Shown one piece after another: positions 1-6,789 of a stretch of DNA of 6,789 nucleotides. Position 1 is the stretch's first letter. Each line of letters opens with the position of its first letter. A program made the translations under genes and the position numbers. The notes under the pieces were generated by a model. The model had not been told where the DNA came from. It did not search any database and was given only the letters and a program-made list of their open reading frames with translations. Origin of the DNA: Lachnospiraceae bacterium (GTDB taxonomy: Bacteria > Bacillota_A > Clostridia > Lachnospirales > Lachnospiraceae); NCBI GenBank assembly GCA_024689605.1, contig JAILDD010000124.1:1-6789 (forward strand), given 5' to 3'.

Positions 1-7
1 TTTTCCA

Positions 8-14
8 CTCTCCC
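8..14 (-). promoter_or_regulatory. Ribosome binding site of the next gene, which starts just off the left edge
   Basis: The minus strand reads GGGAGAG about 7 to 9 bases before the window edge, following ACACAC. With normal spacing the start codon would fall at or just beyond position 1. No start codon suitable for this site lies inside the window, so the coding region is wholly outside it. Confidence 0.6.
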
Positions 15-36
15 GTGTGTGTCCTGCCTGTTCTTT

Positions 37-60
37 AAAAAAGACGCAGAACCACGCGTC
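37..60 (-). terminator. Attenuator-like intrinsic terminator inside the leader
   Basis: The minus strand has GACGCG (60-55), loop TGGTTC (54-49), TGCGTC (48-43) and then six T (42-37). This is a 6-bp stem including one G-U pair, followed directly by a U tract, and it lies upstream of the ribosome binding site at 14-8. The loop and the right-arm base T48 also form the right arm of the AGAACCG/TGGTTCT pairing (84-78 with 54-48), so the two structures compete. This supports premature termination as the control step. The short stem keeps confidence moderate. Confidence 0.6.
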
Positions 61-208
61 GTTTCCGGTCACCCGGACGGTTCTATCTGTACAGTGACTT
101 GTTGTCAATTTGTCTTGACATTCGCTCTGCGTAAAAACCCGTCACAGCTTATGTATTTGCCGGGACGGCAACCTCACGCTTCATAGCTATCGTGTCACAG
201 CAAAAGTA

Positions 209-237
209 AGTATATAGCAGTACTTTTATTTTTGCAA
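209..237 (-). promoter_or_regulatory. Near-consensus sigma-A promoter for the leader RNA
   Basis: The -35 box is TTGCAA (237-232), the spacer is exactly 17 bases, and the -10 box is TATACT (214-209). Transcription would start near 202-201. The DNA just upstream of the -35 box (about 261-241) is a run of A and T tracts that could act as an UP element, which would fit a very highly transcribed gene. It lies after the stop codon and terminator of the LtaS-like gene, so the downstream off-window gene has its own transcription unit. Confidence 0.8.
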
Positions 238-286: not shown

Positions 287-2140
287 TCACTTTTTGGCAA
301 AATATCCGGCTATATTTTTGGATGCAAAGGACTTCATATCCGCCTCAGGGACGCTGACACAGTCATTTCCTGTATACAATATTTTGCCCTGGCACCAGAA
401 AAACGAGTCCATCGCCGTACGCTCATTTTTTGCCCGGTACAATGAGTCCCCCATAAAAGATTCCGGATATCCTATATTAAGAAGATCCAGAATCGTAGGT
501 GCTAAGTCAAGGGAATTCCGTCCCTGTGCATTCAGCTGTCCGGCGTTCCCCTTATAATATATCAGAAGAGGTATCTCATCGCAGGACATGTCTGCACGGT
601 AATAATCCGGAAAAGTATTACGGAAATCCTCGTCGCAGTATGTCGCATGGTCGGCGGTTATCACCACCATGGTATTATCCGCCAGGGGGCTGCTTTTGAA
701 TTTCTCCATGAAGGCGCCGATCTGATAATCGACGTTGTAGAACTTATTGAGCATGCGGTTTCCGCCGTTGCCGTAGATCTCGTCTTCGGAATCAAAAGAC
801 GCATGGGTCCCGAAGCTGTACATCCCCAGGAAAAACGGTGTTCCGCTGCCGCCGTAAACTTCCGCAGTGTTATAGAGCAGCTCAAAAGCATCCTTGTCGC
901 TGATATCCTGAACAACGCCGGTTGCAACAGCGGTATCCGTTATGACAGTATCAAAGCTCATTGCATTCAGATATGATACAAAGTCCGAATTGTATGGTTC
1001 CGTGTTAATGAATGCGGAATAATACCCTGCCCCTCTCAGACAGTCCATCATGGAAGGCAGCGAATTCGGTTCCATATCCTCCAGCGAATATCCCGAGTAA
1101 AGCTGTCCCTGCAGCCCCCTGTAAGTAGCAAACGTATGATTATAATAATTGAAGAAACTGACCGTCTCCCCCTGCAGGGCTTTCAGATTCGGCATTATAT
1201 CCCTGCTGTCGTCAACCACATTCTCAGACAGGCCTTCCACAAAAATCACTATCACATTCGTCCCCTGTGCTGTGGCAAATTTTTCAGCCGGTGCCCCTAG
1301 CGGAAACATAGCATTTGTATAATCCGACAATGAAGCTGCCGCACTTTCTTCCTGTACCTGAGCAGCCTCCGCTGCTTCTGCTGCCCCGGGATCCGTTTCG
1401 GCTGACAGTCCGGATAAATCCTCCTCATCCGGTGTCGGCCCGGCATCAGCTCCCGGCGTATCTTCCGCCCCGGGTAAACTTAGTTCACTCTGTACATTAA
1501 CACCGGACAGATTTTTTTCTTCATTAATATCTGTCGAATATGCTGATTCAGGTGATGACTGCTCCGGCTCCGTTCCAGCCATTTCCTCCATTTCCGCAAG
1601 CATCTGCTCCTTCATGGCGATCATTTCCCGCTTTACCTTCCACTCATTCCCAAGGGACATAAGGCCCAGCGCCGGTGTCAGCGTTCCATGTGCCAATACA
1701 AGCACCAGTATCTCTAAAGCTGCCGCCGCCGGAAGGATATAGAACCACTTGATCTTATCCCCCGTCACCTTCTTTACGGGAAGGAATGAAAATGCAAGAA
1801 CTGCCAGGATCCCCAAGCCATACAGAAATGCTTTTCCGTGAAGATCCTCTAATGATGACAGGTTTTCTATCATGACCAGGGTTACATAACTGTTAGCGAA
1901 ATGCAGCATAAGAGTCTGGGCATTAAATATAAGTACAAACACAGCATTGAGCACATTAAACCAGGGGGATTTTCCCACCAGCACATCCGACAGCGAAAAG
2001 ATAAAAAACAACTCCGCCATGCCGCAGGACAGATATCTTATGTCTTTCATCTCCACAGATACTATGATAAGAAATGTTATTGCGAAAGCATATTTTATTA
2101 TAGTAGGAATATATGCCTTTATTGATTTAAATCTTTCCAT
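287..2140 (-). CDS. LtaS/MdoB-like membrane sulfatase-fold protein (phosphoglycerol or phosphoethanolamine transferase family)
   Basis: 617 residues. Five N-terminal membrane segments (about 14-30, 39-55, 62-80, 104-120, 133-151) are followed by a short helical stretch (166-188), a long acidic Ala/Glu/Ser/Pro/Asp-rich linker (about 189-270), and an extracellular alkaline-phosphatase/sulfatase-fold domain (about 293-570). Active-site residues of the lipoteichoic acid synthase family are visible: metal-binding E302 in VIVIFVEGLSEN, probable nucleophile T339 in NHTFATYRG, H446 in FGTHASF, and D497-H498 in ITADHAT. The family transfers phosphoglycerol (or related head groups) from membrane lipid to a polymer or glycan on the outer face of the membrane. 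The exact substrate cannot be read here, so no symbol is given. The start has a modest ribosome binding site, GGTGA, nine bases upstream. The gene lies 125 bases after the phosphatase gene with a hairpin between, and I see no convincing own promoter. The linker is longer than in classical LtaS. Confidence 0.88.
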   Translation of the reverse strand: MERFKSIKAYIPTIIKYAFAITFLIIVSVEMKDIRYLSCGMAELFFIFSLSDVLVGKSPWFNVLNAVFVLIFNAQTLMLHFANSYVTLVMIENLSSLEDLHGKAFLYGLGILAVLAFSFLPVKKVTGDKIKWFYILPAAAALEILVLVLAHGTLTPALGLMSLGNEWKVKREMIAMKEQMLAEMEEMAGTEPEQSSPESAYSTDINEEKNLSGVNVQSELSLPGAEDTPGADAGPTPDEEDLSGLSAETDPGAAEAAEAAQVQEESAAASLSDYTNAMFPLGAPAEKFATAQGTNVIVIFVEGLSENVVDDSRDIMPNLKALQGETVSFFNYYNHTFATYRGLQGQLYSGYSLEDMEPNSLPSMMDCLRGAGYYSAFINTEPYNSDFVSYLNAMSFDTVITDTAVATGVVQDISDKDAFELLYNTAEVYGGSGTPFFLGMYSFGTHASFDSEDEIYGNGGNRMLNKFYNVDYQIGAFMEKFKSSPLADNTMVVITADHATYCDEDFRNTFPDYYRADMSCDEIPLLIYYKGNAGQLNAQGRNSLDLAPTILDLLNIGYPESFMGDSLYRAKNERTAMDSFFWCQGKILYTGNDCVSVPEADMKSFASKNIAGYFAKK

Positions 2141-2180
2141 ATATTTAATTCACCGCCAATGTTTTTCTTCAAAACCAATT

Positions 2181-2206
2181 ATCGGGCAGGAAACTTCCTG
2201 CCCGAT
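2181..2206 (-). terminator. Perfect inverted repeat, probable terminator of the phosphatase gene
   Basis: ATCGGGCAGGAA and its exact complement form a 12-bp inverted repeat around a 2-base centre; in RNA this would be about an 11-bp GC-rich hairpin with a 4-base loop. It lies about 60 bases after the phosphatase stop. On the minus strand it is followed by AATTGGTTTTG rather than a clean U tract, so termination could be partial. That would allow the LtaS-like gene to be read from upstream. Confidence 0.55.
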
Positions 2207-2265
2207 TTCCACGGTGTATGAAACCACTTATCCTCATTTTCGTCAAGTGTAAAATTCCTGTCCTG

Positions 2266-3744
2266 TCACTTATACGCTTCCTTCAAAGAGTCATACTCCC
2301 CAATCTTTTCCTCAAAACGTCCTTTTACATCCGACGCCCTGTACAGCCCGTTTTCATCCATCTCAAGGCCTTTCAGTCTGATGCCGTATATTCCGGGAGG
2401 ATTGCTTTCGTCCAGTATCTCAACATTCTGCATCTGTGCGGCCGTCTGGTATACGAAATCCATGCACATGTACTCCTCACCGTCCTCCCTCTTCCAGCAG
2501 CTGATCACGATCTTGCTCCCTATGGGAGTTCTTTTTTCTATTGCCTCAGGCAGCCTGCAATCCTCTGCTTCAAGTGCCGCCAGGACGCTGGCCAGGTTCG
2601 AATCATGTCCGCAGATAAAGGAAAACCGTCTGCCACCCTCATTCAATTCATTATCCATCTCCACCAAAAGCGGATGTGCGATATTGACAGCCACCAGTGG
2701 CGATGTGAATAGTACATCGCCATATATATCCTTTATCTCACCTATTGCTTCCCACTCCTCTCCTGTCAGCTCCCTGCCGGAAATCTCGCTGTACCGGTCC
2801 GGTTCCTCATAATACTGCAGTATAAGCGCATCGCTTAGCTGACATGCAGTCTTCAGTGAACCGTTCACTGTGGGCTCATTTCCCTTTGACAGGTTAAAGG
2901 TGGGAACATCCATGGAAAATCCGGTAAAGCTGCCTTTTTGATACGCATCGGAGTCTTCCATATCAAGCACATCCGTAAGCAGCCTGTAGTCACAGGACAG
3001 ATCCGGCATGGCAAGGTAATAAAGCCCCTCCATCTCTGCCAGCGCATCCTCCCTGTATGCTGACGAAAAGAAAGTGAACCTGGGATAGAAAATCGAATCA
3101 ACATTATTGATTCCTTTATGATGCTCTACACCCATATTGCTTACCGGCAGAAGACCCGTCGAGAAAAAACGTGCAGTTGCCACAGTCCTCTGCCACGAAT
3201 TGGCGTAAATCCGCACTTCATCCTCAGCCGGCCTGTAATTTTCTTCAAAAAGCCCTTCGGCCTCCAGCCATCTCCTGAAGTACTGCCCCATCTCCGTCTC
3301 AAGGGTACCGCCCTTTACGGAAAGCTCCGCAGGTGGCGAGGACCATTCGCACCAGCTGTAAGGCGTCAGGCTGTAAAGGGATGAACGGGGACCTGTCAAA
3401 GGCGAGCGGATATTGTGACGGCTTAAGACCACAACCTTTTCCAACGTATATCCCTCATCAGAATAAGGGCCTATTGAATACTTCAGGCCGCTTTCAGTTA
3501 AATGCTGATCTTCAGCATTTTCTGTATTCATATCCGGCGGTGCCTGCCCGGTCTCATCATCGCCCGACTCATCCGCCGGTGACAGCGCAGAAAGGTCCAC
3601 CGTTGCGTCATCACCATTATTCTCATTATCAGATGCATCAGAGGACCTGCGCCCCCCCACAGCATATACTATTCCTGCTGCCGCCAGCACAGCCAGCAGA
3701 ACAAACACAGTTGATTTTAAAATTCTTCCTTTTCGGCGATCCAC
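2266..3744 (-). CDS. Membrane-anchored histidine acid phosphatase (histidine-type phosphatase, phytase/glucose-1-phosphatase-like)
   Basis: I start this gene at the GTG at 3744 (492 residues). GGAGG lies six bases before it (3755-3751), whereas the upstream in-frame ATG at 3825 lies upstream of, and would translate through, the preceding gene's terminator. A signal-anchor helix (about residues 9-29) is followed by an acidic low-complexity linker (32-85) and the catalytic domain. Family motifs: the nucleophile site SRHNIRSP, with R109, H110, R113 and P115; a second phosphate-binding arginine in SWQRTVATARFF (R186); and the proton-donor motif GHDSN (H380, D381). These match branch-2 histidine phosphatases, which remove phosphate from phosphomonoesters, here outside the membrane. 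The HDSN form resembles glucose-1-phosphatase more than HAE-type enzymes, but the substrate is unknown. The RHG glycine is Asn (N111). A G7 run (3658-3652) lies just after the anchor. It precedes the LtaS-like gene. Confidence 0.87.
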   Translation of the reverse strand: MDRRKGRILKSTVFVLLAVLAAAGIVYAVGGRRSSDASDNENNGDDATVDLSALSPADESGDDETGQAPPDMNTENAEDQHLTESGLKYSIGPYSDEGYTLEKVVVLSRHNIRSPLTGPRSSLYSLTPYSWCEWSSPPAELSVKGGTLETEMGQYFRRWLEAEGLFEENYRPAEDEVRIYANSWQRTVATARFFSTGLLPVSNMGVEHHKGINNVDSIFYPRFTFFSSAYREDALAEMEGLYYLAMPDLSCDYRLLTDVLDMEDSDAYQKGSFTGFSMDVPTFNLSKGNEPTVNGSLKTACQLSDALILQYYEEPDRYSEISGRELTGEEWEAIGEIKDIYGDVLFTSPLVAVNIAHPLLVEMDNELNEGGRRFSFICGHDSNLASVLAALEAEDCRLPEAIEKRTPIGSKIVISCWKREDGEEYMCMDFVYQTAAQMQNVEILDESNPPGIYGIRLKGLEMDENGLYRASDVKGRFEEKIGEYDSLKEAYK

Positions 3745-3750
3745 CCATTG

Positions 3751-3755
3751 CCTCC
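3751..3755 (-). promoter_or_regulatory. Ribosome binding site that sets the GTG start of the phosphatase
   Basis: GGAGG on the minus strand, six bases before GTG at 3744. An ATG at 3748-3746 overlaps this region but is out of frame, and the in-frame ATG at 3825 lies upstream of the intrinsic terminator at 3814-3779. GTG is therefore the best-supported start. Confidence 0.75.
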
Positions 3756-3778
3756 GTTTGGTAAATGCTCTAATTTGT

Positions 3779-3814
3779 AAAAAGTCCCTTCCTCTTATGA
3801 AAAAGAAAGGGACT
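3779..3814 (-). terminator. Strong intrinsic terminator of the GGDEF/HD/dctP operon
   Basis: AGTCCCTTTCTTTT (3814-3801), loop TCAT (3800-3797) and AAGAGGAAGGGACT (3796-3783) form a 14-bp stem with two G-U pairs. A run of five T follows (3783-3779, including the last stem base). It lies about 30 bases after the TAA of the TRAP binding-protein gene and upstream of the phosphatase start, so it marks the end of the operon. Confidence 0.9.
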
Positions 3815-3844
3815 CCGCTACTCAAAAACTACTGCCTTGCCGCT

Positions 3845-4852
3845 TTACCTTGCAGCCTGCCACTCCTTCAGCCTGTCTATCATATCCCCGTAAACCGATG
3901 CATTATCGTTAAGCACCTGAGACGTAGCCTCTGCAAAAGGGGCCAGGTCCGGATAATTGATCTCCATGCCGGCTTCCTCAAGCTTTGATATAAGCTCCTC
4001 AGTCTGCCTGCGGTTGCTCTCACGGTCAGATGCCGCACTGCCGAGGGCTGCCGCACTTACTATCTCCTGCTGCTCAGGAGTCAGTTTCTGCCATGTATTC
4101 TCGGATATTGCAAAGCACATTCCCGAATAAATATGATTGGTAACCGAAAGGTACTTCTGTACCTCATACAGATTATTATTGTAGATAACCGGAACAGGAT
4201 TTTCCTGTGCATCATAAGTTCCGGCCTCAAGTGCAGCATAAAGCTCTGAAAATGCCAGAGGCTGGGGATTAGCTCCCAGGGCTGTCATAGTGGACATTAT
4301 GATAGGATTCTCCGGAGTACGGATCAGAAGCCCCTTCATATCCTCAGGCGAATTAACAGGACCTATGGAATTGGTAACACACCTGAACCCATTGTCATAG
4401 TGAGCCAGCACGCGGATATTGTCATCTATAAGTTTTGCCTCAGCCTCAGCCTCAATATCGCTGTCCATGAATGCCCAGGCGGTATCAAAATCATCAAAAA
4501 GGAAAGGCATGGCTGAAATACCCATGGTAGGCTCATAAAGTGAAAAATTCGATGCATCGGAAATTACTATATCTATCTTGCCTGCCCCCATTGCCAGCGC
4601 ATCTATCATGTCGGAATCACCGCCAAGCTCACCTGAAGGATAGATCTTAGCTGTCACCTGACCGCCTGTCTTCTCCGCTATCTCATCAGCAAATGCCTGT
4701 GCTGCAATATTTCTGGGATCGCTTTCACCGGTAGACACACCGATCTTTAATTCTATAGGCCCTGATGCATTCCGGCTGGTGCATCCCCCCGCCAGAGACA
4801 AGGCCGTCACGCCGGCCAGAGCCATTGCCATGATCTTTCTTATTTTTCTCAT
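3845..4852 (-). CDS. dctP: TRAP-type C4-dicarboxylate-family substrate-binding lipoprotein (DctP family)
   Basis: 335 residues. A basic N-terminus and hydrophobic stretch end in a LAGGC lipobox, with Cys24 as the likely lipidated residue, so the protein should sit tethered outside the membrane. The rest is the two-lobed DctP fold: YPSGELGGD (71-79); a conserved arginine in GLLIRTPENP (R178) that in this family contacts the substrate carboxylate; and the GTYDAQENP segment (211-219). Family members deliver organic acids or related solutes to DctQ/DctM permeases. No permease gene is in the window, so it is either an orphan binding protein, partnered elsewhere, or a sensory one. It lies 24 bases after the HD-GYP-like gene with AGGAGG seven bases before the ATG, and it is the last gene before a strong terminator. 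A G6 run falls in the lipobox codons. The solute cannot be predicted. Confidence 0.9.
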   Translation of the reverse strand: MRKIRKIMAMALAGVTALSLAGGCTSRNASGPIELKIGVSTGESDPRNIAAQAFADEIAEKTGGQVTAKIYPSGELGGDSDMIDALAMGAGKIDIVISDASNFSLYEPTMGISAMPFLFDDFDTAWAFMDSDIEAEAEAKLIDDNIRVLAHYDNGFRCVTNSIGPVNSPEDMKGLLIRTPENPIIMSTMTALGANPQPLAFSELYAALEAGTYDAQENPVPVIYNNNLYEVQKYLSVTNHIYSGMCFAISENTWQKLTPEQQEIVSAAALGSAASDRESNRRQTEELISKLEEAGMEINYPDLAPFAEATSQVLNDNASVYGDMIDRLKEWQAAR

Positions 4853-4876
4853 ACTATCTCCTCCTGAATCCCTTTC

Positions 4877-5593
4877 TCACACTTTTGCCTTACGATATGA
4901 CAGACTTTCCATTCTCACCTTAACTGCATCCGTACATTCTTTTATTCGCTTTGGCGGTATGTCGCAAAAACATTTCACGATTTCTTCGTCCAGCTGCTTT
5001 CCAGAGGCGATCTTAAGCTCTGCTATCGCCTCCTCATAGCTGAGTGACGGTCTGTAGGACCTCTCCCCGGTAATGGCCGAATATGTATCAGCCACCGCAA
5101 GTATCCTGGAAGCAACGGGGATTTCATTTCCCTTAAGCTTATAATAGCCGCTGCCATCCACCCGTTCATGATGATAAAGAACCCAATCCCCCACACCCTT
5201 AAGGGCAGGAAGGGAATCCATTATCTCTTTTCCTATTTCAGGATGACGCTGTATCATACGCCATTCTTCATCCGTAAGCTTTCCGGATTTATTCCTCACC
5301 TCTACAGGCACACCAAACTTCCCCACATCAAGAAGCAGTGCTGCATAGGCAAGCTTTTCCCTGTCCACCCGAAACCGATATGAAACAGGCAGGGCATCAT
5401 ATATCAGCAGGCTTAACTTCAGGACATTCAATGAGTGACCGTCCAGTCCCGGATCACCTGCTTCCGCCACGCCCACGAGGGCCTGCATGATTTCAAAACG
5501 ATCCTCTTTCATCTGCTTTAAAGCAATAAAAAAACCGACCCCCAGCACGATAATCAGTATGATTATAATATATTTTAAAATATCACCGCTCAT
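4877..5593 (-). CDS. Membrane-anchored HD-GYP-like protein with altered catalytic motif
   Basis: 238 residues: one N-terminal membrane helix (about 6-25), then a cytosolic HD-GYP-like domain (about 45-210). Family landmarks are helix-1 H53, the HD region ALLLDVGKFGVP (85-96), KSGKLTDEEW (102-111), H117 in QRHPEIG, the HHERVDGSGYY block (141-151), and ILAVADTYSAIT (164-175) with D169. HD-GYP proteins normally hydrolyse cyclic-di-GMP using a di- or tri-metal centre. Here the HD histidine is Leu88 (codon CTT), while D89, K92, H117, H141, H142 and D169 remain. The GYP motif reads GYY, with one residue fewer before KLKG. The domain may therefore be weak, inactive or a binding-only receptor. The ATG overlaps the stop of the GGDEF gene (ATGA) and AAGGAAGG lies six bases upstream, indicating translational coupling. 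The dctP gene follows 24 bases later. Confidence 0.87.
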   Translation of the reverse strand: MSGDILKYIIIILIIVLGVGFFIALKQMKEDRFEIMQALVGVAEAGDPGLDGHSLNVLKLSLLIYDALPVSYRFRVDREKLAYAALLLDVGKFGVPVEVRNKSGKLTDEEWRMIQRHPEIGKEIMDSLPALKGVGDWVLYHHERVDGSGYYKLKGNEIPVASRILAVADTYSAITGERSYRPSLSYEEAIAELKIASGKQLDEEIVKCFCDIPPKRIKECTDAVKVRMESLSYRKAKV

Positions 5594-6789
5594 ACCAATC
5601 CTTCCTTTGTTTCGCTGAATGTTATCTGGTTCTTTCCTGCCCTCTTCGACCGATACAGTGCATCATCCGCACGGTTATATACCTTGTCTATATCATTATC
5701 ATCTGCTGTAATCTCTGTCACGCCGAATGATGCATGTATTCCATTAAGTTCTCCAAAGCTCACGGCATTCAGGCTGTCAAGAATTGCCTGGAGACGGGCT
5801 TTTGCCCCTTCCCTGTCAGCCTCACCCCTTATCATCACAATAAACTCATCTCCCCCAAGGCGTCCTGCAAAACTTAATTTCTGTTCCATTACCAGTTCGG
5901 AAAAGCGAGCCGGTTCATTCCTGTCAGTATCCTGAGTTTCTGTAAAATTGCCAAGTCCCTCAGTAATGATCCGTCCGGTAATCTGCAGTGCCTTATCCCC
6001 CATCTGGTGTCCCAGCTTATCATTTATCTGTTTAAAGCTGTCCAGATCCATCAGGCAGACCACTATATAACCATCATGTGAACTTTTAAGGACTTCCGTC
6101 GCCATGGACATAAACCTTGCCCTGTTGAAAAGCGATGTAAGGGCATCAAAGCTCGACTTTATCTCCAGCTCATTGGTGATCTGAATATTCTTAAGATATG
6201 TGACGAACTGCTGCAGCCTTGTCCTCTGCCTGGTATAGTGCAGGACCAGTGAAAGCGACAATATCAGCACCGTGTAGAAAATATCCTCATTTACTATTGA
6301 GGGGGGTTTCTGTTGAAAACGCAGCGGCTGGAAACCATACTGTACGCTCAGCCAGAACGCGATTGAAAAAACAGTTAATGCTATGCTCATATTTATGACT
6401 GTATCAATATAGGAAACAGCAATAAGCACAAGAAGAACATAAAAGAGTATTGCCGGCTTCTGGGGCTGTGCTATAGATACTAACAGACTGAAGCCCATCA
6501 TAAGCAGCATGCTGGGATATATGAAAAACTGAAACTGCCACTTGGGATTCTTCAGACAGAGTATAACGTATATTTCCCCTATCAGAGCCATCACAAAGAA
6601 ACAGACGAAGGTACCTATCCCCACACGGTCAAGTCCGTTCATGTTGTAACGCACAAAGACACTGGATATCGCGTAATTATCGTATATCCTGATTCCCAGG
6701 AATATCAGCGTAACCGCCAGGAGCCAGCTGTTCATGAACATCATATGCTTGAGGTTCGTCAGCTGGATCTGGGGCCTGCAGTCCCTGTA
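5590..6789 (-). CDS. Membrane GGDEF diguanylate cyclase, 5'-partial at window edge
   Basis: The reading frame is open to the right edge. The first internal ATG (6744) has no ribosome binding site, so the true start is probably outside the window; from that ATG there are 384 residues. Numbered from it, about six membrane segments (roughly 6-20, 42-64, 70-92, 97-114, 117-133, 155-170) precede a short linker and a GGDEF domain (about 198-378). Visible motifs are DALTSLFNR (200-208), DLDSFKQINDKLGHQMGD (233-250, with metal ligand D233 and substrate residues N241 and D250) and intact GGDEF (297-301). The enzyme should make cyclic-di-GMP from two GTP at the inner membrane face. The RxxD inhibitory site is absent (QKLS at 288-291). 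About 23 extra residues lie between GD (249-250) and GGDEF compared with typical cyclases. Its TGA overlaps the ATG of the HD-GYP-like gene. The membrane region may be the sensor. Confidence 0.9.
   Translation of the reverse strand, partial: YRDCRPQIQLTNLKHMMFMNSWLLAVTLIFLGIRIYDNYAISSVFVRYNMNGLDRVGIGTFVCFFVMALIGEIYVILCLKNPKWQFQFFIYPSMLLMMGFSLLVSIAQPQKPAILFYVLLVLIAVSYIDTVINMSIALTVFSIAFWLSVQYGFQPLRFQQKPPSIVNEDIFYTVLILSLSLVLHYTRQRTRLQQFVTYLKNIQITNELEIKSSFDALTSLFNRARFMSMATEVLKSSHDGYIVVCLMDLDSFKQINDKLGHQMGDKALQITGRIITEGLGNFTETQDTDRNEPARFSELVMEQKLSFAGRLGGDEFIVMIRGEADREGAKARLQAILDSLNAVSFGELNGIHASFGVTEITADDNDIDKVYNRADDALYRSKRAGKNQITFSETKEGLV

What the first reader, a model, noticed from the sequence alone, without database searches (positions are those of the whole stretch)
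1..202. Leader RNA with a competing antiterminator and terminator
Two mutually exclusive structures can be drawn. AGAACCG (84-78) pairs with TGGTTCT (54-48), enclosing a GNRA-capped hairpin (77-64). Alternatively GACGCG (60-55) pairs with TGCGTC (48-43), directly followed by six U. TGGTTCT lies in the loop and right arm of the terminator. This is the layout of a transcription attenuator. The GNRA hairpin and A-rich flank look like a protein-binding element, possibly a mimic of a ribosomal RNA site. The regulatory ligand is unknown to me.
Basis: partly seen in the sequence, partly recalled or inferred. Interest (0 to 1): 0.75.

Follow-up and report, generated by a model that had tools for sequence, protein, structure and literature searches.

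The report
S10 ribosomal-protein leader with terminator
The stretch is the start of the messenger RNA for a ribosomal-protein operon, a known kind of self-regulating leader, here followed by a so far uncatalogued folded part that holds a likely transcription stop signal.

Summary
The leader is not an orphan: 192-102 (-) is a full-length match to Rfam RF03136, the S10-Clostridia ribosomal-protein leader (60.4 bits, cut-off 35.1). The window stops before the gene, but close relatives run on into rpsJ (S10) and rplC (L3). P2 and P3 show compensatory changes. The terminator is probably real: 18 of 19 leaders in the window's clade have a terminator-like hairpin here (3.8 expected from shuffles), a sister branch's stem covaries, and 21 of 28 distant leaders have a strong one. 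The antiterminator is weaker: in the window it balances the terminator, but it shows no covariation and fails in two of five subclade leaders scored. Most other family leaders lack the terminator and have a hairpin beside the ribosome-binding site. Ligand inferred: an S10-operon protein, L4 by analogy with E. coli.

The parts
209..237 (-). Promoter-like site: TTGCAA (237-232), 17 nt, TATACT (214-209); start of transcription near 202 (inferred)
   Evidence: Scan; a loose pattern of this kind (one mismatch allowed, no shuffle control) lies upstream in 75 of 76 leaders with enough sequence, 69 of the 75 within a 3-base range of distances
102..192 (-). S10-Clostridia r-protein leader, Rfam RF03136, full-length match (model 1-81 of 81)
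   Evidence: 60.4 bits, cut-off 35.1, E 9.9e-11
90..202 (-). P0, possible closing helix of the Rfam domain: 202-200 and 198-194 with 98-94 and 92-90; shares bases with P1
   Evidence: Minimum-energy folds; covariation not tested
89..104 (-). 5' strand of long-range helix P1 (ACAAG 102-98, ACUGUAC 95-89); its 3' strand lies outside the window (L001 5231-5237 and 5243-5247)
   Evidence: nearly invariant in A1, so neither supported nor opposed there; different but complementary strands in a few distant leaders
64..77 (-).
   Evidence: Covarying helix; the loop is not conserved
42..88 (-). Proposed antiterminator AGAACC 84-79 with GGUUCU 53-48 (plus G78-U54), around P2; extended by 88-85 with 45-42 in the lowest-energy fold
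   Evidence: Isoenergetic with the terminator in the window; no covariation, one pair broken in L023
37..60 (-). Terminator hairpin GACGCG 60-55 / UGCGUC 48-43 and U6 42-37
   Evidence: stem invariant in its subclade; terminator-like hairpins in the same region in 18 of 19 clade leaders
14..58 (-). P3: CGCGUG 58-53 with CACACG 19-14 (one C-A mismatch), extended by GUUCUG 52-47 with CAGGAC 26-21; the terminator and U tract lie in its 5' arm and apex
   Evidence: P3 covaries in the family; the extended hairpin folds at -17.6 to -21.2 kcal/mol in 7 of 7 subclade leaders; the automatic best-helix search did not find P3 in this subclade
1..104 (-). Second, uncatalogued domain (P1-P2-P3), cut off by the window's end
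   Evidence: Model R1: 29.9 bits, E 5.6e-5, truncated at the 3' side

Best explanation
This is the 5' leader of the S10 (rpsJ-rplC-...) ribosomal-protein operon of a Lachnospiraceae bacterium, working as an autoregulatory transcription attenuator. SHOWN by sequence comparison: the RF03136 domain; a second domain P1-P2-P3 after it; rpsJ next in line in close relatives; and, in the window's clade, a terminator-like hairpin with a U run in the P3 apex. INFERRED: an r-protein made from the operon (most likely L4), when in excess, binds the structured leader and favours the short terminator GACGCG/UGCGUC, so RNA polymerase stops at 42-37. When the protein is scarce, upstream pairing (in this strain AGAACC/GGUUCU around P2) delays the terminator hairpin, polymerase passes, and the stable P3 and P1 helices then close over it.
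For: Rfam match. rpsJ and rplC follow in L001. RF03136 in 31 of 35 genomes of the genus and 183 of 200 sampled from the family. P2 and P3 covariation: 40 cells with changes on both sides against 10.4 in shuffles, 0 of 500 reaching it. Terminators in the clade: 14 of 19 by the strict rule, 18 of 19 by the relaxed rule against 3.8 expected, maximum 7 in 20 shuffles. Sister-branch terminator stem, 11 leaders in a register I set by hand: 65 of 66 cells paired, 4 of 6 pairs with double changes. Distant leaders: 21 of 28 with a terminator of -10 kcal/mol or better, 2.9 expected, maximum 5 in 10 shuffles. Near-equal energies of the two window folds. E. coli precedent of L4 and NusA in S10 leader termination (PMC10931766, passages).
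Against: The window's own terminator stem is short (6 pairs, -8.1 kcal/mol) and invariant, so covariation cannot support it directly. The antiterminator fails in L023 and L028 (probabilities 0.00 and 0.06). L030 of the clade has no terminator. Most family leaders lack one. The 19 clade leaders are related, so 18 of 19 is not 18 independent events. No ligand, binding or 3'-end data were seen, and no linear likeness to 23S rRNA was found. The window's subclade fits the domain model worst of the genus (30-41 bits against 55-86).
Confidence: 0.45

Rival explanations
1. The terminator is real but the upstream antiterminator is not. As proposed for E. coli, the protein acts by stabilising a paused polymerase at the hairpin, without a competing RNA pairing.
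For: The antiterminator has no covariation and fails in 2 of the 5 subclade leaders scored. The sister-branch terminators lie beside the P3 5' strand rather than in it. PMC10931766 (passages) gives this model for E. coli S10.
Against: In the window itself the two folds are balanced within 0.3 kcal/mol, as expected for a switch. Competing pairings in the sister branch were not searched for systematically; by eye one is possible (P2 strand CUGUGU with ACACAG in L016, L019 and L024).
Confidence: 0.28
2. The leader is an r-protein leader that acts only on translation or RNA stability; the U6 run is merely the loop of the extended P3 hairpin and stops nothing.
For: Most family leaders have no terminator and have a hairpin beside the Shine-Dalgarno site (automatic call P4+ in 142 of 146). 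The extended P3 is far more stable than the terminator.
Against: The window's clade lacks P4 and has terminator-like hairpins in 18 of 19 leaders with four different stem sequences, and the sister-branch stem covaries.
Confidence: 0.2
3. The pairings downstream of the Rfam domain are chance; only the Rfam domain matters.
For: Single-sequence scores are weak.
Against: P2/P3 covariation and terminators across the clade and in distant leaders.
Confidence: 0.05

Closest known systems
Rfam RF03136, S10-Clostridia ribosomal protein leader
   Same: Window 192-102 (-) matches the whole model above its curated cut-off; same gene context in relatives
   Different: The Rfam model stops at window 102; the P1-P2-P3 domain, the terminator and P4 are not in it, and no other Rfam family matched them in the 14 sources scanned
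E. coli S10 operon leader (termination involving L4 and NusA)
   Same: Same operon; a terminator inside a structured leader; regulation by an operon-encoded r-protein is expected
   Different: L4 and NusA dependence not tested; PMC10931766 (passage) says the E. [quoted passage not shown] I did not check whether Rfam holds a model of it
B. subtilis rplJL leader (L10(L12)4; anti-antiterminator, antiterminator, terminator)
   Different: Different operon and ligand; compared only from a passage in PMC10931766
rpsJ motif RLC-47-1 of Peptostreptococcaceae (PMC11109978)
   Same: Conserved structure upstream of rpsJ, found in Clostridioides difficile and relatives
   Different: Its figure is not held, so its relation to the second domain is unknown (passage)

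Membership tests
RF03136 S10-Clostridia leader | Score above the curated cut-off over the full model | tested here: met
   60.4 bits against 35.1, model 1-81
RF03136 S10-Clostridia leader | Lies upstream of rpsJ | tested here: met
   Met in relatives: the window ends before the gene; in L001 the ORF 3' of the same leader is S10 and the next L3
Transcription attenuator | Intrinsic terminator (stem and U run) between promoter and gene | tested here: met
   as a prediction only
Transcription attenuator | Mutually exclusive antiterminator, conserved by compensatory change | tested here: not met
   Exclusive and balanced in the window, but 0 pairs with both sides changed and one pair broken in L023
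Transcription attenuator | Ligand-dependent termination | not testable with these tools
   Needs transcription assays
E. coli-type L4 leader | L4 binds the leader; mimicry of the 23S L4 site | tested here: inconclusive
   No linear similarity to the 23S rRNA of one family genome, L222; structural mimicry and binding not tested
E. coli-type L4 leader | NusA dependence | not testable with these tools
   Needs transcription assays

The most novel reading that the evidence does not exclude
The S10-Clostridia leader carries a second, uncatalogued covarying domain whose output module has been exchanged in evolution. Most of the distant leaders looked at (21 of 28) have a strong terminator ahead of the ACAC-CGG strand. 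Most Lachnospiraceae leaders sampled have none and a hairpin abutting the ribosome-binding site, so they would act on translation. The window's clade lacks that hairpin, perhaps by a single loss, and has a terminator in the P3 apex. One r-protein sensor would thus drive either transcription or translation control.
Probability: 0.45. Interest if true: 0.55.

Novelty: new variant of a known kind. Interest (0 to 1): 0.4.

Why it matters
The S10 operon encodes many ribosomal proteins (up to 11 genes in E. coli, PMC10931766, passage), so its leader sets much of a cell's ribosome budget. If the second domain and the exchange of output modules hold up, closely related bacteria form a natural series in which one protein sensor is wired to termination or to translation, and the Rfam family could be extended by about 100 nt. 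The window itself is one more member of a known leader family.

Tried and rejected
The GNRA loop as a recognition element: rejected, because loops of P2 vary. 23S mimicry by linear alignment with one 23S rRNA: neither consensus scored above its shuffles (198 and 200 of 200 at least as high). An antiterminator as a general feature: the drawn one is confined to the window's subclade and not kept in all of it. RNAalifold on the raw MAFFT alignment of 175 leaders did not show the domain; with 28 chosen rows it predicted P1, P2 and P3 without being given them. The automatic best-helix search for P3 missed it in the window's subclade. An automatic finder of P2/P3 misplaced P2 in several rows; it was used only to pick candidates. 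The automatic P4 call listed 19 leaders without P4; by eye I took out L038 and L070 (which have it) and added L020 and L021 (which lack the conserved hairpin), giving the 19 used. A first orientation of the distant loci was wrong for many rows (lower table, not used) and was redone with the strands. The P4 count for distant loci failed through a wrong pattern (27 of 28 rows unscored) and was redone. P1 covariation in distant leaders is limited: of 16 leaders without ACUGUAC, L207, L210 and L079 pair better with their own partner than with all but 0, 2 and 1 of 27 others; most do not. Lower P1 is broken without compensation in L022 and L032.

Full report
WHAT THE WINDOW SHOWS. A promoter-like site, TTGCAA-17-TATACT (237-209), puts the transcript start near 202. 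A loose pattern of this kind (one mismatch allowed, no shuffle control) lies upstream in 75 of 76 leaders with enough sequence, 69 of the 75 within a 3-base range of distances. The window ends about 200 bases into the transcript, before any gene.

IDENTITY. Rfam finds RF03136, S10-Clostridia ribosomal protein leader, at 192-102 (-), over the whole model, 60.4 bits against a cut-off of 35.1. Two close relatives were found through the neighbouring sulfatase-like gene (2 loci encode a relative, of 16 stretches matched): Lachnospiraceae bacterium AB2028 (L001) and a rumen MAG (L002). In both, the leader is followed by an ORF starting MTNQRM; in L001 it is S10 (103 aa) and the next is L3. RF03136 occurs in 31 of 35 genomes of the genus of G001 (the genome of L001), 183 of 200 drawn from its family, and 138 of 245 drawn from its class at E <= 0.001 (108 of 245 over the cut-off). 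Eckert and Weinberg 2020 (PMC7247131; abstract, passages and part 1 of 3 of the Results seen) say that they found numerous Clostridia examples of the Firmicutes S10 r-leader and that these are not further discussed except in Fig. 1; the supplement was not open to me.

A SECOND DOMAIN. From 211 loci and the window I extracted 210 leaders. Leaving out the window, L001 and L002 (same genomes as L003 and L004), 176 reached the start codon with the anchors and no N, 175 of them distinct; the rest were distant, truncated or unlike at an anchor. In all 175 the fuzzy anchors of a region that Rfam does not cover were found (Rfam scans of 14 sources). It consists of P1, ACAAG..ACUGUAC pairing with GUACAGU..CUUGU near the gene; P2, a hairpin; mostly AACRACG; P3, CGUGUG with CACACG; and usually P4, a hairpin UCGUACU/AGUGCGA abutting the Shine-Dalgarno site (153 of 175 leaders carry its motifs, found by pattern; its first seven pairs form in 146 to 153 of 153). 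In alignment A1 (28 rows that I chose from 57 candidates for regular P2 and short P3, a favourable selection) 98.3% of cells pair, 7 pairs have changes on both sides and 40 cells have such changes (10.4 in shuffles, 0 of 500 reach it; for the number of pairs 1 of 500 does, for pair types 36 of 500). P2 has 5 such pairs and P3 has 2; the inmost P3 pair fails in 6 of 28 rows; P1 hardly varies. RNAalifold, given no structure, predicts P1, P2 and P3 on A1. A model of it, R1, matches the window (29.9 bits, E 5.6e-5, cut off by the window's end) and all 31 genus loci searched, of which only L018 was in A1; the window's subclade scores lowest (30-41 bits against 55-86). On the 33 fitted matches (32 distinct rows, one of them a weak reverse-strand hit) 6 pairs have double changes and 0 of 500 shuffles reach any of the five measures; but the two outer P1 pairs fail in 12 and 16 rows and two P3 pairs in 7 and 11. 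That alignment leans towards the structure. R1 finds 17 of 245 class genomes and 3 of 299 phylum genomes; these are lower bounds, since G001 itself was missed by the stricter filters. P3 variants such as CGCGCG/CGCGUG, CGGGUG/CACCCG and CGUGCG/CGCACG are listed, which however did not find P3 in the window's subclade. There P3 has one C-A mismatch but is extended by GUUCUG/CAGGAC; L023 changes the U of a U-G pair there to C, which strengthens it. The whole hairpin folds at -17.6 to -21.2 kcal/mol in 7 of 7 subclade leaders.

THE TERMINATOR. With a strict rule (5 T in 7, at least 5 pairs, -3 kcal/mol), 15 of 29 distinct genus leaders have a terminator-like hairpin between P1 and the P3 3' strand (1.7 expected) against 9 of 146 others (5.3 expected). 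The genus splits: 19 leaders lack P4 (automatic list mended by eye, see Tried and rejected). On a tree of S10 plus L3 proteins (63 rows) the 19 rows labelled P4-less need one change (support 88/85; 92% of bootstrap trees; 16.6 changes in shuffles); L152 was not on that tree, and L017, whose leader duplicates another, was. One origin is thus not ruled out rather than shown. With a relaxed rule (4 T in 6, -4 kcal/mol), 18 of 19 P4-less leaders have a terminator (3.8 expected, maximum 7 of 20 shuffles), 2 of 10 genus leaders with P4 (0.5, maximum 3), and 19 of 146 others (11.2, maximum 15 of 5 shuffles). Fully automatic calls give in the genus P4- 17 T+ and 1 T-, P4+ 3 T+ and 8 T-, and in the others P4+ 21 T+ and 121 T-, P4- 1 T+ and 3 T- (rules differ slightly between calls). 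Within the clade the stems differ: the window's branch has GACGCG/UGCGUC, invariant in 5 distinct rows; the sister branch has AGCCCU/AGGGCU, AGCUC/GAGCU and GGCUUC/GAAGCC forms, 65 of 66 cells paired and 4 of 6 pairs with double changes in 11 leaders laid out by hand (L030, which has no such stem, was left out). In the 28 distant leaders read (of 138 class matches, among the better-scoring ones; their families are not told, and L080 looks like a family member) 21 have a terminator of -10 kcal/mol or better ahead of the ACAC-CGG strand (2.9 expected, maximum 5 of 10 shuffles; in L082 the place of that strand is unsure). There the table is P4- 19 T+ and 4 T-, P4+ 3 T+ and 2 T- (L210 counts as T+ by a hairpin beyond the strand, while scores it T-), so the inverse relation is weak in that set. 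Attenuation thus looks common in this leader type, and the window's clade is a terminator-bearing branch in a family that mostly lacks one. I cannot tell which state is older.

THE ANTITERMINATOR. On the window transcript it forms first (0.99 at base 48), then shares with the terminator (0.68 and 0.32 at base 37). In the subclade, its probability is 0.79 in L003 and L029, 0.69 in L025, 0.06 in L028 and 0.00 in L023 (five of the seven subclade loci, without the Rfam domain). Alignment A3 (7 rows, 5 distinct) shows no compensatory change, one pair that varies between G-U and A-U, and one pair broken in L023. P3 and P1 cannot be antiterminators, since their 3' strands are made after the U run.

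MECHANISM. Shown: leader identity, second domain, likely terminator. Inferred: the ligand is a protein of the operon, L4 by analogy. In E. coli L4 regulates S10 transcription, believed to act by premature termination in the leader, most likely with NusA-promoted pausing (PMC10931766, passages). How binding favours termination here is not known. A possible helix P0 between the transcript's 5' end and GUCACUGUA, seen in folds, would compete with P1 and could link the Rfam domain to the second one; this is untested.

NOVELTY. The Rfam leader is known. I found no description of the second domain or of a terminator in it in the searches (listings; passages of PMC7247131, PMC10931766, PMC2965389, PMC11109978 and PMC6429828 seen). 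The library lacks most subscription journals, and the 2007 paper thought to describe the Firmicutes S10 leader (recalled, not seen) was not found. An rpsJ motif from Peptostreptococcaceae is in print (PMC11109978, passage), but its figure could not be compared.

Noticed in passing
L034 and most family leaders, region before rpsJ: A hairpin UCGUACU/AGUGCGA sits directly before AAAGGAGG-CGAC-UUUUUUU-AUG; its motifs are found in 153 of 175 leaders. It looks like a translation-control module.
   Followed up: partly
L001 5266-5272: A second run of seven U lies between the Shine-Dalgarno site and the rpsJ start codon; the pattern CTTTTTTTATG (up to two mismatches) was found in 176 of 197 leaders. 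Its role is unknown.
   Followed up: no
L207, L210: Distant leaders with quite different P1 strands (UAAGAC and CGAUAA with their complements) and a strong hairpin GUCGCAUGU/ACAUGCGAU before the ribosome site, without a terminator ahead of the ACAC-CGG strand.
   Followed up: partly
window 287-6744 (-): Upstream genes by Pfam: GGDEF protein and HD-domain protein whose ORFs overlap by 4 nt (5590-5593), DctP-type solute-binding protein, histidine phosphatase (branch 2), and a sulfatase-domain protein next to the leader.
   Followed up: no
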